Assembly: GCA_002239045.1 (NCBI GenBank)
Contig: MPNN01000011.1
Span: 1-64,000, forward strand
Reading direction: 5' to 3'
Length of the DNA stretch: 64,000 bases
From: SAR202 cluster bacterium bin127
Lineage (GTDB): Bacteria; Chloroflexota; Dehalococcoidia; Lucifugimonadales; Lucifugimonadaceae
The translations under genes and the position numbers were made by a program. The notes under the pieces are model-generated. The model was not told where the DNA came from and made no database searches. It worked only from the letters and a program-made list of their open reading frames with translations. Every line of letters starts with the position of its first letter. Within the stretch, counting starts at the first letter, position 1. Shown piece by piece: positions 38,977-51,251 of the stretch.

Positions 38977-39685
38977 ATGCTGATCGACGACGACAACGCT
39001 CAGCCGTCGCTCATGGAGCACGTCCTGGCCGAGACCGCGAAATACGGCGTCGTCACGACCCGCCGGATCACCGGAGATGTCCAGCTGGAAGGAAGCCTTG
39101 CACTCCCACGCGGTTCAGCCGATACAGCAGTCCCGCTACACCGTCGGCAAGAACGCAACGGACAGCGCGCTCATCATCGACGCCATGGACCTTCTCCACT
39201 CCGCCGCCGCCGACGGTATTTGCATCGTCTCGAGCGACAGCGACTACACGAGGTTGGCCACCAGGATCCGGGAGCAGGGACTCTTCGTCATGGGCATCGG
39301 CAGGTCCGGCACGCCGAAATCGTTCGTCAACGCCTGTGAGCTGTTCGTGTACTCCGAGATCCTGTCGCCGCCCGCGGACGAAAACACCCAGGCCGAGGAC
39401 CCGGGTTCCGCGGAATGGACCGGCACGGCGGCGCGGGCGGTGGAGATGGCGACCCAGGAGGACGGGTGGGCCTTTCTCGGCGCGGTGGGCAGCCATCTGC
39501 TACAGCGAATCTGGGGTCCGGAGAAAGTCGGCGAACCCTGGCTGGTGCGGGACATGGTGAGGAGGCTACGCCGCAAGCTGGGCGACGATGCCGACAACCC
39601 CATCTACATCTTCACCGAGCCCCGCGTCGGCTACCGGATGCCGGAGGGGGAGGGGGCGGGCGAGGAACCGCCCATCACACCCTGA
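38977..39685 (+). pseudogene. NYN (LabA-like) protein with OST-HTH start and OmpR-type tail, frameshifted
   Basis: Frame 1 begins MLIDDDNAQPSLMEHVLAET, the NYN nuclease start with its acidic residues. After a shift near 39075, frame 2 continues SWKEALHSHAVQPIQQSRYT, NATDSALIIDAMDLLHSAAA and ICIVSSDSDYTRLATRIREQ, the rest of the domain. The segment usually reading GDWT is deleted. Then EDGWAFLGAVGSHL looks like an OST-HTH start. The end (VRRLRRKLGDDADNPIYIFT, EPRVGYRM) is the C-terminal half of an OmpR-type winged helix. It is a broken chimera. NYN proteins cut RNA. Confidence 0.65.
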
Positions 39686-39722
39686 GTGCGGGGAGCTATG
39701 GGTGGTGAGGAGGAGAAGTGAC

Positions 39723-40499
39723 ATGACGACTGGGCGGGACTTCCTGGAAGCCATCGGTGCTCAGAACAACGCGTTCGAGCGGATGTTTTTCGAGTGGATA
39801 GAGTCCTACAACGGCGAGGGCGATCTGGACATCTTGGAAGCCTTCGGGGAGATGATGCTGGCCCTCGACAGGTTCATTGATTGCGGATGGGGTTGCGATG
39901 ATGACCACCCGGAAGAGCACTTGTTGGCGATTTGCGTCACCCGCATCAGAGCGATTCTCCCCCTCACTGCCTGCGGATACCCCAGCGAGGCTGGCGCACT
40001 CTTTCGGCCGTTGGGGGAGACGGTCAATCTCATGGCGCTCTTGATGGCCTCCCGCGACGAGCTTGAGGCTTACCGGCTTGGCGACAGGAGGCAGAGGAGG
40101 AAAAGGTTCAGCGCGGAGAATGTGAGGGGGATGCTGAAGCGGGAGCGTTTCCCGGTTCCTCTAAACGCGAGGGCTTACGGTACGGTCAGCGACTTCTACC
40201 TGCATCCGAACGCGCTGGACCACATCTTCGCCCATCGAACCTCGCACGAAGGGGAAGGGTTTGTCATTCCCTACTTCCACAGAGACCTATGCGTCATTTT
40301 CTTCATAAACCTGGTCTCGGCAGCCGCTACAGCCCTCCTCTTCTGGGCCTGCGCTCGGGAGGACGATAGCGACTTTAGGCTCGCCCATGCCTTTAACGAG
40401 AGGACAAACAAGGCATTGCGTGCCTTCACCGCAAAGATGGCTCAGGACCCAACAGTCGAACGTGTACCTATCGTCGAGGCCGCTCAGCAATCCGAATAA
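39723..40499 (+). CDS. Hypothetical protein (258 aa), possibly DUF5677-like
   Basis: Mostly helical: AFERMFFEWIESYNGEGDLD, RIRAILPLTACGYPSEAGAL, FRPLGETVNLMALLMASRDE and NALDHIFAHRTSHEGEGFVI. A hydrophobic helix near residue 205 reads VIFFINLVSAAATALLFWAC. The layout resembles DUF5677-type proteins, with a conserved Arg/Glu helix, but I am not certain. AGGAGGAG lies upstream of ATG 39723. It stands alone before the CBASS operon and may be an accessory or a separate defence gene. Confidence 0.55.
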   Translation: MTTGRDFLEAIGAQNNAFERMFFEWIESYNGEGDLDILEAFGEMMLALDRFIDCGWGCDDDHPEEHLLAICVTRIRAILPLTACGYPSEAGALFRPLGETVNLMALLMASRDELEAYRLGDRRQRRKRFSAENVRGMLKRERFPVPLNARAYGTVSDFYLHPNALDHIFAHRTSHEGEGFVIPYFHRDLCVIFFINLVSAAATALLFWACAREDDSDFRLAHAFNERTNKALRAFTAKMAQDPTVERVPIVEAAQQSE

Positions 40500-40582
40500 T
40501 CGGTTAACCCCCTTTGTCGGAAAGCAGTCTACAGACCGGGAGAGGCTAGTTTTGCACTTGCCTCAGCTATTCCAGTGTAGAT

Positions 40583-40611
40583 GTTGACTTTCAACTCAAC
40601 ATCCGTATATC
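40583..40611 (+). promoter_or_regulatory. Promoter and candidate operator of the CapH/CapP genes
   Basis: TTGACT (40584-40589) and TATATC (40606-40611), 16 bases apart, form a likely promoter. GTTGACTTTCAACTCAAC (40583-40600) covers the -35 box and is partly palindromic. Its inverse complement matches 15 of 18 bases at 41658-41675 before the patatin gene, so one repressor may bind both. Confidence 0.6.
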
Positions 40612-40630
40612 CTCTATGAGAGGTGACGAT

Positions 40631-40993
40631 ATGGACTTCCCAGAGCATCTACGAACATTACGCAAGGAAGCTCGGATGAGCCAGCGGGAGCTTGCAGAGC
40701 GGGTCGATGTGGATTTCACGTACCTGAGCAAGATTGAGAACGGCCGGGTTGAGCCTCCCAGTGAGACCGTTCTGAAGAAGATTGCAAAGGAGTTGGCGGT
40801 CGCATTGGGCCAGGATGAAACTGAGCTTTCCGACGACCTTATCACTCTGGCCGGGAAGATTCCGTCGGACCTCGCCGAGACACTGGCCCGGAATCCACAG
40901 GCCGTTCAGTTTCTGCGGTCAATCGGAGACGATGTACGATCACCTTCTGAGTGGCAGAGACTCATCCGCGGCAGATCGCAGGATCAGGAATGA
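40631..40993 (+). CDS. capH: CapH-like XRE repressor
   Basis: Residues about 8-65 are an XRE HTH (LRKEARMSQRELAERVDVDF then TYLSKIENGRVEPPSETVLK). It is followed by the ImmA/IrrE-like protease and then a CBASS operon, the same order as published CapH-CapP pairs. In those, CapH represses CBASS and CapP cleaves CapH when single-stranded DNA accumulates. I chose ATG 40631 with GAGGTGA just upstream; ATG 40616 lies only 5 bases after the -10 box. Confidence 0.7.
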   Translation: MDFPEHLRTLRKEARMSQRELAERVDVDFTYLSKIENGRVEPPSETVLKKIAKELAVALGQDETELSDDLITLAGKIPSDLAETLARNPQAVQFLRSIGDDVRSPSEWQRLIRGRSQDQE

Positions 40994-41637
40994 CAACCAA
41001 ATTCTTATCGGACTCTCAGCTTGAGGAGATGGCGGCCCGTGTGCTACGGCGCTACGAATCCTCTCATGGAGCGGTTAACAATCCCCCGGTCCCTGTGGAG
41101 CGGATTCTGGAAGACCTCCTGGACCTCAATATTCTTTGGGACGACATCTCCGAACCACCGCGTCAGTCCATACTCGCTGCACTTGATCCCAGTTCCAAGA
41201 CCGTGGTGTTCAACGAATCAAGGCGGACACTCATTACCGACACCCCGGGTCTGTACTACACAGTTCTCGCTCATGAAGCGGGACATTGGGAGGTCCATGT
41301 CGACCATGGGATCTTGGCCCAGCTACCCTTGCCTACCCTTGAGCGGGATTTCAGCTGCCTCTACAGGAGTTCCGGGCCTGGCCAGGATTTGCGGGAGGTC
41401 CAGGCCCACAGGTTCATGGGGTTTCTTCTCATGCCCTCAGAGATGCTGAGGGAAGCGATCAAAGATGTTGAGTTGCTCAGGTGGCCCGCGCTCTACGAGC
41501 TGCGCGACAGGTTCCAGGTGACCATTACGGCCCTCAAGGTCAGGCTGGAGAGACTCGGCCTCTTGTATGTGACAGAGGATGGGGACCTGTATCCGTCCCA
41601 GCAGGAGTATGAAGGACAGGTGCGCCTAAGAAGTTAA
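40990..41637 (+). CDS. capP: CapP-like ImmA/IrrE metallopeptidase
   Basis: YTVLAHEAGHWEVHVDHG contains the HExxH zinc motif (HEAGH). After it comes VQAHRFMGFLLMPSEMLREA, the conserved helix with the third-ligand region. The C-terminal part (RDRFQVTITALKVRLERLGL) is winged-helix-like and typical of the family. It overlaps the CapH-like gene by ATGA. It likely cleaves CapH to switch on the neighbouring CBASS genes. Confidence 0.8.
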   Translation: MTTKFLSDSQLEEMAARVLRRYESSHGAVNNPPVPVERILEDLLDLNILWDDISEPPRQSILAALDPSSKTVVFNESRRTLITDTPGLYYTVLAHEAGHWEVHVDHGILAQLPLPTLERDFSCLYRSSGPGQDLREVQAHRFMGFLLMPSEMLREAIKDVELLRWPALYELRDRFQVTITALKVRLERLGLLYVTEDGDLYPSQQEYEGQVRLRS

Positions 41638-41657
41638 GTCTGATTAAGCATTTTGTA

Positions 41658-41675
41658 GTTGAGTTGAATCCCAAC
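41658..41675 (+). promoter_or_regulatory. Second candidate CapH operator, upstream of CapV
   Basis: GTTGAGTTGAATCCCAAC matches the inverse complement of 40583-40600 at 15 of 18 positions. It lies 42 bases before the patatin start. TTGACA at 41680-41685 follows directly but lacks a good -10 box before the ATG. Confidence 0.6.
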
Positions 41676-41716
41676 GCATTTGACATTTCAAATCTCTATC
41701 AGGTGAAAGGCTAAAG

Positions 41717-42643
41717 ATGCAAACCTCTACAGCTCAAGGTAGCCCCTTCGCCATACTCGCCCTGGATGGGGGCGGCACAAGGGGAGTTTACTCGGCTCAG
41801 GTTCTTGCTCGTATAGAACAGGAGACCGGCGAACCTACAAGGGAGCTCTTCGACCTGATAGCTGGCACAAGCACGGGATCAATCATCGCGGGAGCCGCAG
41901 CAGTGGGCATTCCCATGTCCGAAGTAGTCCGGCTCTTCGAGGAGGAGTCGAAACGCATCTTCCAGAGGAGGCGGCTGGGCTCGTTCCACATCCGAAGCAA
42001 ATACTCGGGGCGGTCTCTCGAACAGGTCATCCGCGGCTGCGTGTCCGACCTGACCCTGGGTCAAATCTCGACGCCCCTGATGATAATGGGATCGGACATC
42101 TCGACCGGCGGTGTGCATGTGTTCAAGTCCGCATACCCGAAAGTGCTTGGAGAGCCCTACGTGAGAGACTCGGATGTCGCCCTTAGCGACGCCATCCTAG
42201 CGTCGTGTGCCGCACCCACGTACTTCGACCCCGTACCGGTTGGTGATTTCCTTCTGGCAGACGGCGGCCTGTGGGCCAACAACCCATCAATCATGGCGCT
42301 GACGGAGGCCATTTCAAAGTTCAGGCGGTCGGTTGACCAGGTACGCATCCTGTCAGTCGGCACCGGACACTCCATCAATATTTATTCCCGGCGCAGGCTT
42401 TGGGGCCTCATCACCGGTTGGGGCCGGGAGAAGTTGGTCTCGTATGTGCTCAGACTGCAATCTGACGCCTCGGCAAATATGACTAAGTTGTTGCTCCGAG
42501 ACAGGTACCTGAGGCTTGACCCCGAGATCGAGGCGTGGGATCTGGACGACACCGAGCATCTGGCCAGTCTCAAGGCACTCGCGACGAGAGATTTCGCCCT
42601 GCGCAGCGACGCCATCAGGAGAAACCTAAAGCCGGCGCAGTGA
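41717..42643 (+). CDS. capV: Patatin-like phospholipase effector (CapV)
   Basis: LALDGGGTRGVYSAQVLARI is the oxyanion glycine motif. AGTSTGSIIAGA has the nucleophile serine (about 52). DGGLWANNP has the catalytic aspartate (about 182). CapV phospholipases are activated by the cyclic nucleotide made by the cyclase and degrade the membrane of infected cells. Length (308 aa) is normal. It is the first gene of the CBASS operon and precedes the CD-NTase by 44 bases. Confidence 0.9.
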   Translation: MQTSTAQGSPFAILALDGGGTRGVYSAQVLARIEQETGEPTRELFDLIAGTSTGSIIAGAAAVGIPMSEVVRLFEEESKRIFQRRRLGSFHIRSKYSGRSLEQVIRGCVSDLTLGQISTPLMIMGSDISTGGVHVFKSAYPKVLGEPYVRDSDVALSDAILASCAAPTYFDPVPVGDFLLADGGLWANNPSIMALTEAISKFRRSVDQVRILSVGTGHSINIYSRRRLWGLITGWGREKLVSYVLRLQSDASANMTKLLLRDRYLRLDPEIEAWDLDDTEHLASLKALATRDFALRSDAIRRNLKPAQ

Positions 42644-42687
42644 CGACGCAGTCAATGCAAAGGAAAACATTCTCAAAGGAAAAAGGT

Positions 42688-43707
42688 ATGACCAAGAACA
42701 ATCAGGACTTTCAAGACTTCCTCAGGGATGAGGTCAATCTCAATGAGAGGCGGCTTCGTCGACTGGAGACCGGCGTGGGTGCCGTGAGCGCTTACCTCAA
42801 GGACCATCTTACGGGCTACCAGAAGATGGAGCCGCAAGGTTCATACGCTCTTAGAACTCTCATCAAGCCAGTTGATGACAACGATGAGTATGACGCCGAC
42901 ATCCAGATCGGGATGAATCCCAACCCACGGTGGGAGCCCAAAGACTACATCCAAGCGATCTACACGACTCTGAAGCAGAACCAGAACTACGCAAGCAAGC
43001 TCCGGCTCAAGACTCGGTGTGTCACCATAGACTACGCCGGCGACTTCCACTTGGACGTGGTCCCCCGGGTGACCTCTGGTGGCAAACACTACGTTTGCAA
43101 CCGAATCGAAAACAGATTCGAGGCAACGGACGGGACCGGATACCGGGACTGGTTCAACGACAAGAATCGGATAACGGGCGGCAATCTCAAGCGGGTCGTC
43201 AGAATCCTCAAGTACCTCCGAGACCACAAGAACAACTACACCGCCAAGTCAATCCTGCTCACCACCCTGGCGGGCAACACCATCAAGCCGTCCGATGAAG
43301 GGACCGAGGCCGTCAGCACCGTGGCCGACACGCTGGTGACTGTGCTCACGAGGATAGACGACTACCTACAGGGGAATCCCTACATGCCGGAGATTAGGAA
43401 CCCTGTGTTACCGGGCGAGACCTTCAACCGTCATTGGGACCAGAGGAGATACTCCAACTTCAGAAACAAAGTCCACTCCCATGCGTTGACGGCGAGGAAC
43501 GCCAAGGCAGAATCGTCGAGTGAACGGCCTATCAAAATCTGGCAGGATCTGTTCGGGGAGAGCTTCGGCAAGGGTTCGTCCGGTGGGGGCGGAGGTGGAG
43601 GAGGCAACGGTTCATCAAGCCGAGGGAGCACCGCCGCCGTGGGAGCGACATCTGGAGTGGGTTCCACGGCAGCGCGCCGACGCAATGAGGCCCAGGGGTT
43701 TGGGTAG
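42688..43707 (+). CDS. cdnA: CD-NTase (cGAS/DncV-like nucleotidyltransferase)
   Basis: EPQGSYALRTLIKPVDDNDE then YDADIQI give the GS motif and DxD metal pair (about 48-72). FHLDVVP holds the third Asp (about 121). The last 45 residues are a Gly/Ser-rich flexible tail ending EAQGFG. In type II CBASS, Cap2 attaches the C-terminal glycine of the cyclase to target proteins, which raises its activity; the tail here fits that role. I chose ATG 42688 with an AAGGAAAAAGG site. The clade is not determined, so the symbol is tentative. Confidence 0.85.
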   Translation: MTKNNQDFQDFLRDEVNLNERRLRRLETGVGAVSAYLKDHLTGYQKMEPQGSYALRTLIKPVDDNDEYDADIQIGMNPNPRWEPKDYIQAIYTTLKQNQNYASKLRLKTRCVTIDYAGDFHLDVVPRVTSGGKHYVCNRIENRFEATDGTGYRDWFNDKNRITGGNLKRVVRILKYLRDHKNNYTAKSILLTTLAGNTIKPSDEGTEAVSTVADTLVTVLTRIDDYLQGNPYMPEIRNPVLPGETFNRHWDQRRYSNFRNKVHSHALTARNAKAESSSERPIKIWQDLFGESFGKGSSGGGGGGGGNGSSSRGSTAAVGATSGVGSTAARRRNEAQGFG

Positions 43708-43709
43708 AT

Positions 43710-45320
43710 ATGACTACGGACGATCACTTTGATCAGGAGTCGCTACAGGCATTCATCAGAGAACTGACGGATGCTGGCTTCCAGCTGATCCCCGAATCCA
43801 ATCCTCAACGATGGACGGGGGAGATTCATCCTGACTTTGGGCCGCTGACCGAAGCTACTACTATGGACATCGTCATAGTTCCAGGTTGGCCGTTCCAACC
43901 CCCGGCACTGTTCGTCCAGGGCCTGAACACCAATCACTCAACCCTTGATGGCCTAGTGTGCATGTGGCGTGAAGGAGATTTCAGTCACGACTGGACCACT
44001 GTGGGTGGGTTTTTCTCCAGGATTGAAGAATGGTGTGAGGACGCGAAGCATGGGTGGAAGGACGACCGACTTAACCAGGACGCCTTTCTGAATTTCCGGT
44101 CGAATTCTCGGCTTGCCGCCACCTTCGACCTTCCGGCAATGGGCATTGCAGAGGGGAGTTGGGGTGAATGTCACAGCGTCCTTGGTCAGAGGCCGCCCCG
44201 AGTGGACATTATGCCGGGGCCCAAGCGGTCGACGGATCAACTGCGAGTACTCTGGTTTCACGTTGGGTCACTGAACGCACCGCCGCCACGGAACCTCTCC
44301 GAGGTTTCCACGTGCCTGCCAAGAACGCAGCGCAGACAGCTGAAGCGAGCATTGGCAGACAGACGCAAGCCTGAATTCCTGACCGCCAGCGGTGGAGTGG
44401 ATGTCATCCTCTTCTGCTGGGAACGTCACGGCCGGCCCGACCTCTTGGTAATGGCATGTACGGGCACAAATGACGAGGTCGCGGCAGTCGCCCTGCAGGC
44501 TGCCCCGAGAGACGAACAGAGCCTAATTCTGCGCGCGGGGCCTGACGCAAAGGTGTTGGGTAAGTGCAGAGCCACGGTATTCGGGGCGGGAGCGCTTGGT
44601 GGGTACACCGCGACGCTGCTGGCCGAAAGTGGTGTCGGGGCTGTGGACATAGTCGATCCCGATGTACTGCTACCAGGCAATGTAGTAAGGCACTTGTCCG
44701 GTCATTCCGTGGTAGGGGCGCCCAAGGCGCATGCGGTCCAGGCTGTGATAGGAGACCACGCTCCCTGGACTGAGGTTTCGGGATTTCTGGAAGGACCTCG
44801 AACCCGAAGGGAGATCCAAGAGCGCATACTGCCCGCCGACATCGTTGTGGACACGACAGGCAACGAAGCCCTGGTTAGATCGCTGGCCATAGTGGCGCAA
44901 GAGCATGAAAAGCGACTGGTCACGGGTGCGCTTTACCGAGGCGGCTTCATCGCTCGCGTCCGCAGACAGGCGATACCTGGAGATACACCAATTCATCTGC
45001 GAGACGACCTGACGCGCTATCCACTAATACCCGCAGGACCAGAGGGCGAGGACTTCGCCGCACCCCAGTTGGGCTGCTCAGCACCCGTCAACAACGCGCC
45101 ACCTTCAGCAGTGTCGGCATGTGCTTCCCTCATAGCGCAAGCCGCAATAGATGTGATGACGGAGCGGTATGAGTTTACCGATGAGGTAATTGATGTTTAC
45201 CGGTCCATACCGGAGCCGCCGTTCCACCAGATTGGAAGGGTTGGACGGGGGGGATGCGTTACGTCCCAAGAATCTGCGCTACAGCGAGCGGTCGAAGACG
45301 TAACAAGCCTGATGTCGTAA
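43710..45320 (+). CDS. cap2: Cap2: fused E2-E1 conjugating enzyme
   Basis: Residues 1-150 are an E2 (UBC-like) domain: VPGWPFQPPALFVQGL, then LDGLVCMWREGD with the likely catalytic Cys84. From about 285 an E1/ThiF adenylation domain follows (TVFGAGALGGYTATLLAESG, VDIVDPDVLLPGNVVRHL). A cysteine near 456 in QLGCSAP is the likely E1 thioester site. It should activate the cyclase C-terminus and transfer it to targets. No separate Cap3 (JAB) gene follows. It starts 2 bases after the cyclase stop. Confidence 0.88.
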   Translation: MTTDDHFDQESLQAFIRELTDAGFQLIPESNPQRWTGEIHPDFGPLTEATTMDIVIVPGWPFQPPALFVQGLNTNHSTLDGLVCMWREGDFSHDWTTVGGFFSRIEEWCEDAKHGWKDDRLNQDAFLNFRSNSRLAATFDLPAMGIAEGSWGECHSVLGQRPPRVDIMPGPKRSTDQLRVLWFHVGSLNAPPPRNLSEVSTCLPRTQRRQLKRALADRRKPEFLTASGGVDVILFCWERHGRPDLLVMACTGTNDEVAAVALQAAPRDEQSLILRAGPDAKVLGKCRATVFGAGALGGYTATLLAESGVGAVDIVDPDVLLPGNVVRHLSGHSVVGAPKAHAVQAVIGDHAPWTEVSGFLEGPRTRREIQERILPADIVVDTTGNEALVRSLAIVAQEHEKRLVTGALYRGGFIARVRRQAIPGDTPIHLRDDLTRYPLIPAGPEGEDFAAPQLGCSAPVNNAPPSAVSACASLIAQAAIDVMTERYEFTDEVIDVYRSIPEPPFHQIGRVGRGGCVTSQESALQRAVEDVTSLMS

Positions 45321-45356
45321 ACTACATCAGGGCATCAAACCAACTAGGATCGAGCC

Positions 45357-45557
45357 ATGAACATACCCGCAGAACACACCGTACCCCAAGCGGCGTCATA
45401 CCTCAAAGTGGGTGAAGAGACGGTCCGCAGAAACATCAGGTCAAAGCTCCTAAAAGCCTTGCGCCGCGGAACCCAGTGGTTCATCCCCCACGATGTCCTC
45501 GTGGTCTTCGCCAACAGCTATGACCCGAAGACGGGCCAAGTACGAAAAATGCTATAG
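45357..45557 (+). CDS. Small HTH protein (excisionase-like, 66 aa)
   Basis: TVPQAASYLKVGEETVRRNI followed by LLKALRRGTQWFIPHDVLVV is the MerR/excisionase-type HTH (type IV pilus-independent DNA binder). It lies between Cap2 and the MBL gene on the same strand. It may be a local regulator of the second gene set or a recombination directionality factor left by an insertion. Confidence 0.7.
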   Translation: MNIPAEHTVPQAASYLKVGEETVRRNIRSKLLKALRRGTQWFIPHDVLVVFANSYDPKTGQVRKML

Positions 45558-45617
45558 CCCATCGGAGTTCATGTGACCGCAGAGGACTACTAACTACGTC
45601 ACACCTGAGGAGACGAT

Positions 45618-46778
45618 ATGTCGAAGCTTGAGAACTTCACACTACCGGATAGGGGATTTGTCTTTTGGCCAGTGGGGTCAGGGGACAGTACAACCATTGT
45701 TATTGATGACGATCACGTCATGCAGGTAGACCTGCGACAATTGGAATCGAGCTCTGAAGAGGACGACCCTCACGCTCCTGTGGCCGATCTTCTGGAGAAA
45801 CTCTTGCCTCAGAAAGATGGCAAGCCATATCTAGCCGCCTTTGTCCTAACTCACCCCGACAAGGACCACTGCCAGGGGTTTGCTGACCTAATGGACAAAG
45901 TCTCGATCGGGGAGATTTGGATATCACCCCGTGTCCTGAGTGAATTCGACGAAGACCTGTGCGATGACGCTGAAGCTCTCAAAGACGAGGCTGAGCGAAG
46001 AGTCAAACAGGCTAGGAATGGCAAGACGAGCTCGGGAGATCGCGTTCGAATCATTGGATATGCCGACATCCTTGATGAGGATGACTATGAAGGGTTCCCA
46101 GAGGAAATGCTGACTATTCCTGGCAATGAGGTTACGGAAATTGATGGAGAGGAGCTGTCTTCAACATTCCGCGCCTTTGTGCATGCCCCTTTCAAGGACG
46201 ATGCCGAGGCAGAACGCAACGATACCAGCGTTGCCCTACAGATTACACTGAAAACTACAGGTGCTTCCTGCAGGGCGTTGCTCCTTGGCGACCTCAGTAA
46301 TCCCACCGTGAACAGAATCTTCTCCATCAGCGACGACGCGGACATGGAGTGGAATGTACTACTCGCACCCCACCACTGCTCGAAGACAGTCATGTACGTA
46401 GCTGATGATGACGGCAACGACGTGCTCGACAGGGAGTTGATGTCCAAGATAGAGGATGCGGGAGGAGAGTGTCGCTACATAGTCTCTAGCTCAGAGCCGA
46501 TCCCGGCCAGGAATCAATCGGGCGACAACCCTCCTCATGCAAAAGCAAAGAACCGCTACGAGGAGATTGTCGAGACAGGTCACTTCCTCTGCACACATGA
46601 ACGCCCATCGGAGGATAAGCCCGAACCGATAGTAGTACGAGTTTCGGACGAAGGCTGCGACCTAGATCCGGTTGAAGAATCAAGTGCAGACCTTTCTGGG
46701 GGCGTATCGGCTGCCATCATCGAGGCACGAGGGACCGACACTCCACCAACCAGACAGGTTGGCTTTGGGGCGTCATGA
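45618..46778 (+). CDS. MBL-fold metallohydrolase with GFG-AS C-terminus
   Basis: FWPVGSGDSTTIVIDDDHVM opens an MBL fold. THPDKDHCQGF (about 77-87) is the first metal motif, LLLGDLS (about 221) and LAPHHCSK (about 249) the later ligands. The layout recalls ComEC-type MBL hydrolases. The last 35 residues are low in complexity and end PTRQVGFGAS, very like the GFG end of the cyclase. It overlaps the E2-E1-JAB gene by ATGA. It may be an effector or the substrate conjugated by that enzyme. Confidence 0.75.
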   Translation: MSKLENFTLPDRGFVFWPVGSGDSTTIVIDDDHVMQVDLRQLESSSEEDDPHAPVADLLEKLLPQKDGKPYLAAFVLTHPDKDHCQGFADLMDKVSIGEIWISPRVLSEFDEDLCDDAEALKDEAERRVKQARNGKTSSGDRVRIIGYADILDEDDYEGFPEEMLTIPGNEVTEIDGEELSSTFRAFVHAPFKDDAEAERNDTSVALQITLKTTGASCRALLLGDLSNPTVNRIFSISDDADMEWNVLLAPHHCSKTVMYVADDDGNDVLDRELMSKIEDAGGECRYIVSSSEPIPARNQSGDNPPHAKAKNRYEEIVETGHFLCTHERPSEDKPEPIVVRVSDEGCDLDPVEESSADLSGGVSAAIIEARGTDTPPTRQVGFGAS

Positions 46779-49180
46779 ATGTAAGCCCTGGGCAACAGAA
46801 CGGACTCCGCGACCTAGAATCAATTACCCAATGGGGGGATGCTCTAGAAATAATCGCGGTGACCGAACCCAAAGACGAGGGTGGCCTTCTAACCGTGGAG
46901 ATCGCTCTCTCACTCAAGGGTGTTGTTCGAACTGCAAGTGGCATCCCGTTGCGTCAGAGGGAACGGTTCTTCCTACTGGTCCCATTCAAGTTTCCTTTCC
47001 GCCACCCCTCTGTATTCGTTCCTCATCAGCGATGGGCTTCTTGGCCTCACGTTCAATGGACGAGGGTACTCTGCCTCTATCAGGCACCTGAGACGGAGTG
47101 GAATCCCGGCGATGGGATGTTCGGGCTCATTGACCGACTGTACACGTGGGTGAAGCAGGCCGCCGTCGATCAGCTCGACCCAGGTGGAGCGCCTCTACAT
47201 CCGCCAGTGGCATATGTCAGTAACTCGCCTGGCCCACTCGTCATCCCGTACTCTAATACTCCGGCAGTTGAGAACGACCCGTGGATAGGCTTCGGATGTA
47301 TTCGTCAGAATTCAGACAACAGGATAGATGTCGTCGGTTGGTGTGGATTGGATGAGACCCCCACCAGCGAAGCCGTTGCTGCCGCCATACTTCTTCCTCG
47401 GGCCGCATCTTTCGAGTTCCCTGAGCGGGTCCGGGATTTGCTCGCCATGTTGGAGAGTCAGGGCATCTCTCGAAGTGACTTGATTAAGGCACTGGGGGAT
47501 GCGGCGGACACAAACGGCAAGGACACTCAACTTCTAGTTTTGATAGGCACGCCAACTCGTGGAATCAGCGAGTCAGGTGAGTACCCGCAGCACCTAGTAG
47601 CTTGGCTGCTAGAGCCAACAATCGCTAACGGCCTCAGATTGGCCCTCGAGCAGTTCTCACCTCACGAGAAGCTACAAGAAATAGGTCGAGAATGTGAACG
47701 AATAGTTATTGAATGGTCGGAAAAGGCTGAGGTCAATTGGTGCCGGGTAAGGGAAGCACGGCCGGAAGTTACAGTCCGACGAGACGAAGGCTCTCCTCTT
47801 GGTTGGTTCAGGGGCAAATCAGTGGCCGTTTGGGGCTGCGGAGCAATTGGTGGTCATGTAGCCGAAGCTCTGGCCCGAGCCGGCGCGGATAAGTTGGTAC
47901 TGCGGGACAAGAGCGTGGTCACTCCGGGAGTGTTAGTACGCCAGCCATTCGAAGATTCCGACATTGGGAAGAGCAAGGCTGTCGCAACGCGGGAACGTTT
48001 GCGAAGAATAATCCCCGGCCTGTCTATAGACGTGATGGATGGGGACATTCTTGACGGCCCAATCGACCAGACCGATCAGGCCGACGACGTCGACATGGTG
48101 ATTAACGCCACTGCATCGTGGCCAATTGCCCAATACCTAGAGGCGCGCCGACGCTCGGATGCAGCAAGCAGGACCGTGATTGCTTCCATGGTACTGGGTC
48201 GTCATGCTCAACGATCTATGTTGAATGTAGCCAAAGGAGACTACACGGGCGGCGCTGTCGATCTGGCGCGAAAGACCAAGATTGAGACATTGAAGCACGG
48301 GCGCTTATCTCATTTTCTTGACGACTTCTGGCCCGACGTACCGCAGCAATCCTTCCAACCCGAGCCCGGTTGCTCTGAACCCACATTTGTCGGGTCGCAA
48401 GGTGAGGTGATCGGGCTGGTTGGAATGATGTTGAGCAAACTGGGCAGGGAGATGACGCGAGACAGTTCCGCTGCGGCATCAAGTCACTTGTTCACAGCTT
48501 CTGGTGTGGACATCGGAAAAGAAGAACTCAAGGAGTGGGACTTCTACTTTGATGCAGACATCTGTCTCCGAGACAACGTGGATGGCTACGCCGTCACGAT
48601 AGCACCCCAGGCACTTACACAGCTCCAAGCTTGGGTACGGCAGTCCGAAGAGATCAATGGCCCTCTGGTAGAGACCGGAGGCCACATTTTCGGTGAGCGG
48701 AACGATGCAGCCCGAGTCATCTGGGTGTCAGAGGTTTTGGGGCCTCCGCCAGACAGCAAGGCCAGCCCCGATGGTTTTGTGTGCGGGATCGAAGGGGTGG
48801 CGGAGGCATCGAAGGACAAGTCCCGCTCCAGCGGAGGGTCCATCAGGTTCGTGGGAATGTGGCATACACATCCAAAGGGGTCCCCGAGGCCTAGTGATAC
48901 TGACTATCAGTCAATGCAAGAGATAGTGGACAGTCCCGCGCTCTCTTGCCCCCGCAGCCTGCTGTTGATTATAGGGACCACACACGAACAAAGGGCCTTT
49001 ATAGCCACGACCTTGCTCTTTTCTAAGGGCCGAGTGCCGCCCTTCCACGAGCTAGCCAGACAAGCCGAACCTGCAACAATCACTCTGCCGGAGAATCCAG
49101 ACCCAGTAGAGGATGCAGTCGAGCGCTCGATAGCAAAGATACCTATGTGGAAGAGATTGCTTCGAAGGAACAAGGCATAG
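46775..49180 (+). CDS. Triple fusion E2-E1-JAB protein (801 aa)
   Basis: Residues 1-150 form an E2-like domain (FPFRHPSVFVPHQRWASWPH, then TRVLCLYQAPE with likely Cys about 101). From about 350 an E1/ThiF domain follows (VAVWGCGAIGGHVAEALARA); a cysteine near 531 (EPGCSEPT) is the likely thioester site. From about 625 a JAB domain follows with TGGHIFGE, SEVLGPP and MWHTHPKGSPRPSDTD, the complete JAMM motif. One chain thus combines conjugation and de-conjugation or precursor processing. Related fusions with MBL genes were noted in comparative genomics of bacterial ubiquitin-like systems. No ubiquitin-like protein is visible here. Confidence 0.85.
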   Translation: MNVSPGQQNGLRDLESITQWGDALEIIAVTEPKDEGGLLTVEIALSLKGVVRTASGIPLRQRERFFLLVPFKFPFRHPSVFVPHQRWASWPHVQWTRVLCLYQAPETEWNPGDGMFGLIDRLYTWVKQAAVDQLDPGGAPLHPPVAYVSNSPGPLVIPYSNTPAVENDPWIGFGCIRQNSDNRIDVVGWCGLDETPTSEAVAAAILLPRAASFEFPERVRDLLAMLESQGISRSDLIKALGDAADTNGKDTQLLVLIGTPTRGISESGEYPQHLVAWLLEPTIANGLRLALEQFSPHEKLQEIGRECERIVIEWSEKAEVNWCRVREARPEVTVRRDEGSPLGWFRGKSVAVWGCGAIGGHVAEALARAGADKLVLRDKSVVTPGVLVRQPFEDSDIGKSKAVATRERLRRIIPGLSIDVMDGDILDGPIDQTDQADDVDMVINATASWPIAQYLEARRRSDAASRTVIASMVLGRHAQRSMLNVAKGDYTGGAVDLARKTKIETLKHGRLSHFLDDFWPDVPQQSFQPEPGCSEPTFVGSQGEVIGLVGMMLSKLGREMTRDSSAAASSHLFTASGVDIGKEELKEWDFYFDADICLRDNVDGYAVTIAPQALTQLQAWVRQSEEINGPLVETGGHIFGERNDAARVIWVSEVLGPPPDSKASPDGFVCGIEGVAEASKDKSRSSGGSIRFVGMWHTHPKGSPRPSDTDYQSMQEIVDSPALSCPRSLLLIIGTTHEQRAFIATTLLFSKGRVPPFHELARQAEPATITLPENPDPVEDAVERSIAKIPMWKRLLRRNKA

Positions 49181-49189
49181 AGTCGATGC

Positions 49190-50062
49190 ATGGAACAACG
49201 GAGGAGCCACTTGACGCTGAGGTTCATAACTTGGAACGTTGAGCATGGAAGTGCGGCCCTGATCCAGACGCCGAATGGCCAACAGATAGCTGTAGACCTC
49301 GGATCAGATGCAGGGTTCAGCCCGCTTCAGCACATGAAATACCGCATGGGAATCGACCAACTGGACAAAGTCATTATCACCCATCCTCACATGGACCACA
49401 TTGAGGACATATTGAATTTCGACTTGTTGAGCCCACGAATACTGATGAGGCCGCGCCAACTCACTGCAGACGACATCAGCGCAGGACATAACAACGTGGG
49501 GCCAGAAGCCGTTCAGATTTACCAGAAATACCTGGAGATAAATGCTAGATATACGAGCCCGGTAGAGAGTGCGAATGACCCCGATATCGCGGCAAACAAC
49601 GGGGGAGCGTCCATCCTCACCTTCTCACCCTCGCGCTCTCTTAAGACAAACCTGAACAACCACAGCATCGTTACTGTGATTGAGTATCAAGGTGTGAAGA
49701 TACTGTCTCCAGGGGACAACGAGCCTCCATCGTGGGAGGAACTGCTCGCCAACATGGCATTCAGGGAGGCCATAAATAACACCCATGTCCTTGTTGCACC
49801 GCATCATGGTCGGGAGTCAGGGTTTCACTCGGATCTATTCAATTTCATTTCTCCGCTGTTGACCATCATTTCGGACGGAAGGACGGTGGACACGAGTGCC
49901 ACCGGTCGATACTCCACCAGGACCGAAGGATGGAAAGTGTTGAGAAGGAATGGCAGCTCTGCGGTCAGGAAATGTGTCACGACACGAAATGATGGGATGA
50001 TCGAAGCCATCATCTCGCCCAACCAAAAGGGAATCGGGTCGCTCGACGTAATAGTGGATTGA
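49190..50062 (+). CDS. Second MBL-fold metallohydrolase (ComEC-like)
   Basis: FITWNVEHGSAALIQTPNGQ is the first strand pair. ITHPHMDHIEDILNF (about 63-77) is the classic HxHxDH motif. LSPGDNE (about 172) and VAPHHGRES (about 202) provide further ligands. It starts 9 bases after the E2-E1-JAB stop and 4 bases separate it from the patatin gene, so all are one transcript. It differs from the first MBL protein in length and ends without a GFG tail. Nuclease or cyclic-nucleotide hydrolase roles are possible. Confidence 0.75.
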   Translation: MEQRRSHLTLRFITWNVEHGSAALIQTPNGQQIAVDLGSDAGFSPLQHMKYRMGIDQLDKVIITHPHMDHIEDILNFDLLSPRILMRPRQLTADDISAGHNNVGPEAVQIYQKYLEINARYTSPVESANDPDIAANNGGASILTFSPSRSLKTNLNNHSIVTVIEYQGVKILSPGDNEPPSWEELLANMAFREAINNTHVLVAPHHGRESGFHSDLFNFISPLLTIISDGRTVDTSATGRYSTRTEGWKVLRRNGSSAVRKCVTTRNDGMIEAIISPNQKGIGSLDVIVD

Positions 50063-50066
50063 ATGC

Positions 50067-51173
50067 GTGAGGCTGATGGAACGAGATTCAGGAAACGTGG
50101 GAATCGGGATCGCGCTCTCCGGAGGTGGTTTCAGAGCCACACTCTTCCATATGGGAACCCTGTGGCGAATCAATGAGATGGGGATGCTTCCAAGCTTATC
50201 CGCAATATCTGCGGTGTCGGGAGGGTCCCTCGTTGCAGGACTCTTGGGGATCCGCTGGGAAAGGCTGCGGTTCCAGAATGACGTTGCTACGCACTTTGCC
50301 GAGGAGGTGGCTGAACCGACACTCAGCTTTTGTAGGGTAAACGTCGACTTGAAGAGCATTCTCTTAGGGTTCTTGGCGGGTTCAAGCACTTTGGAAGGTT
50401 TCTACGAGAAGCACTTGGTCGGCAAGACTACTCTGCAAGACCTCCCTGATTACCCCGAGTTCATATTCAACGCTTACCACTTGGAAACAGGACGCAACTG
50501 GAGATTCTCCAAGGCGAGGACTCACACTTGGCGGATAGGCGACATCAAGCGCCCTACAACGCCGATGAAGAAGGTTCTCGCCGCATCGACTGCCTTCCCA
50601 CCGTGGCTCCCTCCAGTCAGGCTAAGAATGAACCCAGAGGAGTTTGAAGAATCGGAATTCGCAGACCACTTTCAGGAGCCGCGGCTAAGAACCAGGGTTA
50701 CGCTGGGCGACGGTGGGGTTTACGACAATCTAGGATTCCATCCCCTAAGGGAGATGAAGGACATCCTGGTGTCGAATGGCAGCAGCCCGCTGCACGTCGA
50801 GACGATGTCGAAATGGAAGTTTTGGGTCGATAGAGCCATACGTCCTCTTGGAGCAGCACTGGAGCAGACTAGGGCACTCCGAATAAATGCGTTGATGAGC
50901 GATCTGACAGGAGGACGGAAAAGCGGGGCTCTCTGGATGATCAGTACCGACCCAACGAGATATACGGCAGACAATCCATTCGACATTGCCGAAGGATGGC
51001 CTGAGACCCTCGGACGGATTAGAACTAGACTAAGCAGGTTCACTGAAGAGGAACAGAAACGGTTGGTCAACTGGGGATACATCCAGGCCGACCTAGCCAT
51101 CAGAAGTTACTACCGGCCGGAGATAGAGCCTCCAGACCGTTTGCCGTTTCCTGAGTACGGCTTCGATGTCTAG
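50067..51173 (+). CDS. Second patatin-like phospholipase
   Basis: ALSGGGFRATLFHMGTLWRI is the glycine-rich oxyanion motif. AISAVSGGSLVAGLLG carries the nucleophile Ser (about 51) in VSGGS. LGDGGVYDNLG has the catalytic Asp (about 215). It is not closely similar to CapV at 41717, so it is a separate acquisition rather than a duplicate. It closes the cargo operon and is probably a membrane-attacking effector of the second gene set. Start at GTG 50067 or ATG 50076. Confidence 0.8.
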   Translation: MRLMERDSGNVGIGIALSGGGFRATLFHMGTLWRINEMGMLPSLSAISAVSGGSLVAGLLGIRWERLRFQNDVATHFAEEVAEPTLSFCRVNVDLKSILLGFLAGSSTLEGFYEKHLVGKTTLQDLPDYPEFIFNAYHLETGRNWRFSKARTHTWRIGDIKRPTTPMKKVLAASTAFPPWLPPVRLRMNPEEFEESEFADHFQEPRLRTRVTLGDGGVYDNLGFHPLREMKDILVSNGSSPLHVETMSKWKFWVDRAIRPLGAALEQTRALRINALMSDLTGGRKSGALWMISTDPTRYTADNPFDIAEGWPETLGRIRTRLSRFTEEEQKRLVNWGYIQADLAIRSYYRPEIEPPDRLPFPEYGFDV

Positions 51174-51251
51174 CAGATGGTGTGAGTCACAAGATGTACG
51201 CCCTAAGCGGGCAAGGCTACCGGATGGCGAAACTAGATCCGTGATCAACTA

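What the first reader, a model, noticed from the sequence alone, without database searches (positions are those of the whole stretch)
40583..41675. Shared 18-bp inverted motif links the CapH/CapP promoter and the CapV upstream region
GTTGACTTTCAACTCAAC at 40583-40600 overlaps the -35 box of the XRE/ImmA pair. Its inverse complement recurs with 15 of 18 matches at 41658-41675, before the patatin gene. Published CapH-CapP pairs repress CBASS until CapP cleaves CapH. The motif offers the operator expected for this wiring, so the CBASS is probably silent until single-stranded DNA accumulates.
Basis: partly seen in the sequence, partly recalled or inferred. Interest (0 to 1): 0.75.

Follow-up and report, generated by a model that had tools for sequence, protein, structure and literature searches.

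The report
CapH operators flanking a CBASS regulator
Two matching DNA sites beside a bacterial anti-phage gene cluster are very probably the landing sites of its own repressor, because the same sites sit in the same places beside related repressor genes in several bacterial phyla; this gives a readable control code for a known type of DNA-damage-triggered immune switch.

Summary
GTTGACTTTCAACTCAAC lies at 40583-40600, and its 15/18 inverse at 41658-41675, in the 79-bp capP-capV gap. Shuffled windows give 0.05 matches, against 2 found. Site 1 sits inside a perfect 8-bp inverted repeat (40580-40603) and carries the -35 box of the capH promoter. In the 3.0-Mb host genome these two are the only good matches outside ORFs.

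Comparison supports the operator reading strongly. At 3 mismatches or fewer, the window's 18-mer occurs upstream of capH in 12 of 35 CapH-CapP loci and after capP in 7 of 35, against 1 of 1948 background tiles, across several phyla. The operator tracks the repressor, not CBASS: 21 of 23 loci with recognition helix DFTY[LI]SKIE have it, 0 of 13 with NFTYLSRVE do; the latter carry a different palindrome.

Best explanation: CapH binds both sites and represses capHP and the CBASS genes; CapP cleaves CapH after DNA damage. Binding, cleavage and ssDNA sensing remain untested. No sigma-70 promoter is recognisable at site 2, and the three closest relatives lack site 2. A new member of a known kind; I could not compare it with the published CapH operator.

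The parts
40580..40603 (+).
   Evidence: conserved upstream of capH in other genomes
40584..40613 (+). Predicted capHP promoter: TTGACT, 18-nt spacer, TATCCT; the -35 lies inside operator 1
   Evidence: the same geometry at most related sites
40631..40993 (+). capH-like repressor gene (XRE HTH, 120 aa); alternative upstream start 40616
   Evidence: PADLOC capH E=6e-10; AF2 pLDDT 90, HTH matches CapH 7t5u and DdrO
40990..41637 (+). capP-like metallopeptidase gene (ImmA/IrrE, HEAGH motif, 215 aa), overlaps capH stop
   Evidence: PADLOC capP E=2e-11; profile best PDB hit CapP 7t5t E=1.9e-9; best fold hit 7t5t
41658..41675 (-). Operator 2: mirror-image copy, GTTGA-GTTGA-ATC-CCAAC on + strand, between capP and capV
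   Evidence: mirror sites directly after capP in other genomes
41717..42643 (+). capV, patatin-like phospholipase effector of CBASS
   Evidence: Pfam Patatin 1e-31; PADLOC CBASS phospholipase effector 5e-84
42688..43707 (+). CD-NTase (DncV-like cyclase)
   Evidence: Pfam SMODS 4e-30; PADLOC cyclase 5e-115
43710..45320 (+). cap2, E2-E1 ubiquitin-transfer-like protein; no separate Cap3 (JAB) gene follows
   Evidence: PADLOC E1-E2 3e-211

Best explanation
The two sites are operators of the CapH-like repressor encoded between them. A CapH dimer probably recognises the arms GTTGA...TCAAC; the inner half-site could let a second dimer or an alternative register bind. At operator 1 the left arm is the -35 box, so binding blocks RNA polymerase and CapH represses capHP. 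At operator 2, after capP and before capV, CapH blocks initiation at, or passage into, the CBASS genes. When the CapP metallopeptidase is switched on, in published relatives by single-stranded DNA, it cleaves CapH and both sites are freed. Shown here: the sites, their uniqueness in the genome, their conservation at both positions, the promoter overlap at operator 1, the co-variation with the CapH helix, and the family assignments. Inferred: binding, cleavage, the ssDNA trigger, and repression of CBASS.
For: Window 18-mer (no training on relatives) at <=3 mismatches: 12/35 capH upstream regions and 7/35 post-capP regions, against 1/1948 background tiles (Fisher 1e-21 and 2e-12). An identical 18-mer lies upstream of capH in a Bryobacterales genome, L031. 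The three closest CapHP relatives (CapH 77-81% identical) have it with 1 mismatch, while the orphan CapH without CapP (L016) lacks it. Chloroflexota loci L115, L116 and L117, found by separate genome searches, show it too, L116 and L117 on both sides of capHP. Paired sites occur beside type III CBASS (L044, TRIP13) and a CD-NTase/Cap15 CBASS (L027). Operator type follows the recognition helix, 21/23 vs 0/13 (Fisher 5e-8), and the other helix class has its own palindrome in 11/13 vs 0/23. A -10 at 16-18 nt from a TTGA box recurs at most up-sites, 77% vs 7% of random anchors. The only intergenic sites in the genome are these two.
Against: No binding or expression data. No sigma-70-like promoter is found at operator 2 in the window; only 3 of 15 post-capP sites place a -35 in the operator. 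The three closest CapHP relatives have operator 1 but no operator 2. Canonical gammaproteobacterial CapH-CapP pairs do not carry this motif, so the published system is not a direct precedent for the sequence. Many loci in the statistics are related, so the p-values overstate independence.
Confidence: 0.82

Rival explanations
1. Autoregulation only: CapH controls its own promoter at operator 1; site 2 is a decayed or weak copy, and CBASS is transcribed by read-through from capHP.
For: No promoter seen at site 2; site 2 is the weaker site, with a GTTGG arm; closest relatives have only site 1; capV starts only 79 bp after capP.
Against: Sites directly after capP recur in about a dozen other loci, many as perfect mirror images; a match this good in the 79-bp gap has p = 0.00018; L017/L018 have a terminator-like hairpin with a T-run after capP and still carry the second site.
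Confidence: 0.15
2. The motif is only a conserved promoter element (a TTGAC-type -35 region), not a repressor site.
For: TTGAC is the -35 consensus and lies inside site 1.
Against: Conservation extends over 15 to 18 bases including arms in the spacer; the site recurs in mirror orientation after capP, where it is usually not a -35; the type of site changes with the CapH helix.
Confidence: 0.03
3. The pair is an ImmR/ImmA-type control module of a mobile element, whose operators merely happen to flank a defence cassette.
For: XRE plus ImmA/IrrE pairs control ICEs (PMC10233336); an excisionase-like gene lies downstream; the region is a low-GC island; same-genus genomes lack CapP.
Against: Best profile and fold matches of the peptidase are CapP and PprI; the downstream genes in several loci are defence genes, three of them CBASS; no integrase was seen among the genes identified, though the whole window was not annotated.
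Confidence: 0.07

Closest known systems
CapH-CapP control of CBASS (Lau et al. 2022, cited in PMC13373217 and PMC10904395; structures 7t5u, 7t5t)
   Same: HTH repressor gene followed by an overlapping metallopeptidase gene, directly upstream of a CBASS operon; profile and fold matches.
   Different: Window CapP is shorter (215 vs 291 aa in 7t5t). CapH has recognition helix DFTYLSKIE rather than forms such as SKSYIWELE or DHAYIHRLE, and the operator found here is absent from the 14 best-scoring gammaproteobacterial CapP loci. The Lau paper was not held, so its operator could not be compared.
DdrO-PprI (IrrE) of Deinococcus
   Same: XRE repressor with C-terminal dimer domain cleaved by an IrrE-type protease activated by ssDNA (PMC10904395); HTH fold matches 6rnz/6jq1.
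   Different: Regulates many repair genes through RDRM sites; here only two local intergenic sites exist in the genome.
ImmR-ImmA of ICEBs1/TnSmu1
   Same: Repressor and anti-repressor protease pair (PMC10233336).
   Different: Controls ICE activation; here the downstream genes are CBASS.
CapK-CapS (PMC13373217)
   [quoted passage not shown] ssDNA-triggered.
   Different: Kinase and STAS-wHTH protein, not protease and XRE.

Membership tests
CapH-CapP (controller of associated pathways) | XRE-type HTH repressor related to CapH | tested here: met
   PADLOC capH 6e-10; profile hit 7t5u 5.6e-9; fold match TMt 0.79. XRE matches are broad, so this alone is weak.
CapH-CapP (controller of associated pathways) | ImmA/IrrE metallopeptidase with HExxH related to CapP, adjacent to capH | tested here: met
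   HEAGH; HExGH invariant in 30 homologues; profile best hit CapP 7t5t 1.9e-9; fold rank 1 7t5t
CapH-CapP (controller of associated pathways) | Located immediately upstream of an immune operon | tested here: met
   capV, CD-NTase, cap2 follow
CapH-CapP (controller of associated pathways) | CapH binds its own promoter and the immune operon promoter | tested here: inconclusive
   Conserved operators at both positions; no binding data; promoter at site 2 not recognised
CapH-CapP (controller of associated pathways) | CapP cleaves CapH | not testable with these tools
   An arginine (R96 of the window CapH) is invariant in 36 homologues in the C-terminal part; cleavage itself needs an assay
CapH-CapP (controller of associated pathways) | Activation by single-stranded DNA | not testable with these tools
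   Window CapP lacks about 75 residues relative to 7t5t; whether it binds ssDNA is unknown
CBASS | CD-NTase plus effector in one operon | tested here: met
   cyclase 5e-115, phospholipase effector 5e-84, E1-E2 3e-211
CBASS type II (complete) | separate Cap3 isopeptidase | tested here: not met
   No separate JAB gene follows cap2; the only JAB domain found nearby is in the neighbouring 6A-MBL protein

The most novel reading that the evidence does not exclude
This clade of CapH-CapP is a portable DNA-damage switch with a readable operator code: paired, mirror-image GTTGA/TCAAC sites mark the boundaries of whatever genes it controls (CBASS of at least three kinds, and probably repair and unknown defence genes), and the code changes with a few residues of the CapH recognition helix.
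Probability: 0.5. Interest if true: 0.65.

Novelty: new member of a known kind. Interest (0 to 1): 0.5.

Why it matters
It turns a guess from one sequence into a testable operator conserved across several phyla. If right, the operator pair can be used to find genes under CapH-CapP control, including unknown defence genes, and the two helix-operator classes make DNA recognition by CapH directly testable.

Tried and rejected
Motif-first search of 400 Chloroflexota-type genomes: 8 genomes matched; five hits fall in the conserved coding sequence of nuoK and two in other ORFs, so the bare pattern is not specific without a promoter filter. Plasmid search with CapP: one weak hit. Viral contigs: one distant CapH relative. 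Gammaproteobacterial canonical CapHP: no motif. Search for a general promoter rule at post-capP sites: no consistent sigma-70 pattern. RNA structure between capP and operator 2 in the window: nothing beyond shuffles. Lau et al. 2022 is not held, so the published CapH operator could not be compared.

Full report
What was checked. Shuffled windows give 0.05 matches, against 2 found. Site 1 lies within GATGTTGA-CTTTCAAC-TCAACATC, a perfect 8-bp inverted repeat, and has three half-sites: GTTGA, an inner TCAAC and an outer TCAAC. Site 2 has the same layout in mirror image: GTTGA-GTTGA-ATC-CCAAC. TTGACT of site 1 pairs with TATCCT at 18 nt as the only sigma-70-like promoter in the region.

What surrounds it. 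The genes are capH (120 aa, start probably 40631), capP (215 aa, ATGA overlap), capV, a CD-NTase and an E2-E1 Cap2. The CapP profile has the CapP structure 7t5t (Thauera sp. K11) as best PDB hit (E=1.9e-9), and its predicted fold also ranks 7t5t first, then PprI. The CapH model (pLDDT 90) matches DdrO, SinR, ClgR and CapH 7t5u among others, as any XRE protein would; its assignment leans on its partner. The region from about 39.7 to 51.2 kb has about 55% GC between flanks of 65-70%, and three genomes of the same genus lack CapP, which suggests horizontal gain.

Conservation. A scan of the genome collection with a CapH alignment gave 80 loci, 36 with CapP. Using only the window's 18-mer, 12 of 35 capH upstream regions and 7 of 35 post-capP regions match with 3 or fewer mismatches, against 1 of 1948 background tiles (Fisher 1.4e-21 and 2.2e-12). 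The loci are partly related, so these p-values overstate independence; with the three closely similar Dehalococcoidia loci counted once, the first is still 4e-18. Members with sites come from Dehalococcoidia, Ktedonobacteria, Acidobacteriota, Planctomycetota and Paenibacillus. One genome has the identical 18-mer (L031). Further Chloroflexota loci, found by separate genome searches, show it as well. Two of the high-scoring 'background' tiles lie just before genes next to the module in L027 and L022, so they may be real sites.

Which half-sites matter. The outer arms GTTGA-N8-TCAAC persist where the inner one is lost (L020, L037, L058), so the outer 18-bp palindrome is the likely basic site and the inner half-site an addition (inference). 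Some post-capP sites have four half-sites, that is two overlapping 18-bp palindromes offset by 5 bp (L020, L024, L029).

Link to CapH rather than CBASS. None of the 36 relatives has close homologues of the window's CBASS genes. Downstream genes instead include TRIP13-type CBASS (L044), CD-NTase plus Cap15 (L027), QatA (L014, site before capH only), an SF1 helicase/nuclease (L013, site before capH only), an SbcCD-like pair (L031) and a DNA polymerase III alpha-like protein (L020, L029). The operator follows the CapH recognition helix: DFTY[LI]SKIE 21 of 23, NFTYLSRVE 0 of 13. The second class carries GTTGACAGT-N4-GNCAAC in 11 of 13 against 0 of 23. The 13 are related Planctomycetes, so this is one or a few evolutionary events. 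Gammaproteobacterial CapH with other helices lacks the motif.

Specificity in the host. Of 21 near matches in the genome, only these two are outside ORFs. The regulon is therefore probably just this locus.

Limits. At operator 2 no promoter is recognisable in the window, and only 3 of 15 post-capP sites have a -35 in the operator. CapH may act there on a -10 or start region, on an unrecognised promoter, or as a roadblock to read-through. In L017 and L018 a terminator-like hairpin with a T-run follows capP, so there a separate downstream promoter is likely. Binding, cleavage and the ssDNA trigger are inferred from published relatives (PMC13373217, PMC10904395, PMC10233336). The shorter CapP makes the ssDNA step less certain.

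Verdict. Observation confirmed; operator reading well supported; the full 'silent until ssDNA' wiring plausible but untested.

Noticed in passing
window 45618-51173: Directly after the CBASS lies a second anti-phage system: MBL protein (NCBIfam 6A-MBL enzyme, 5e-89, above cut-off) and an E2-E1-JAB fusion (6A-MBL cap2_3, 6e-108, above cut-off), followed by a second MBL protein (PADLOC PDC-M48B, 1e-91) and a second patatin. No CapH operator was found before it.
   Followed up: partly
window 39700-51200: GC content drops to about 55% from 65-70% on both sides: the two defence systems form a probably foreign island.
   Followed up: partly
L020 and L029 (Paenibacillus), after capP: CapH-CapP with operators at both positions precedes a DNA polymerase III alpha-like gene, which suggests that the switch may also control damage-inducible DNA synthesis.
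   Followed up: no
L045-L060 (Planctomycetaceae): CapHP of the NFTYLSRVE class carry a variant palindrome GTTGACAGT-N4-GNCAAC; in L060 a copy after capP precedes what reads like a csrA start.
   Followed up: partly
L027:4116-4133: A perfect operator lies before a 571-aa gene upstream of capH in Salinivenus, a possible third target or the real operon promoter.
   Followed up: partly
window 40990-41634 and relatives: CapP homologues share a conserved C-terminal tail (GQ..LF-like) of unknown role.
   Followed up: no
window 38977-39685; L115: What looks like a frame-broken NYN/LabA-like gene lies just upstream of the island; a similar protein is encoded a few kb from the CapHP module in L115. May be coincidence.
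   Followed up: no
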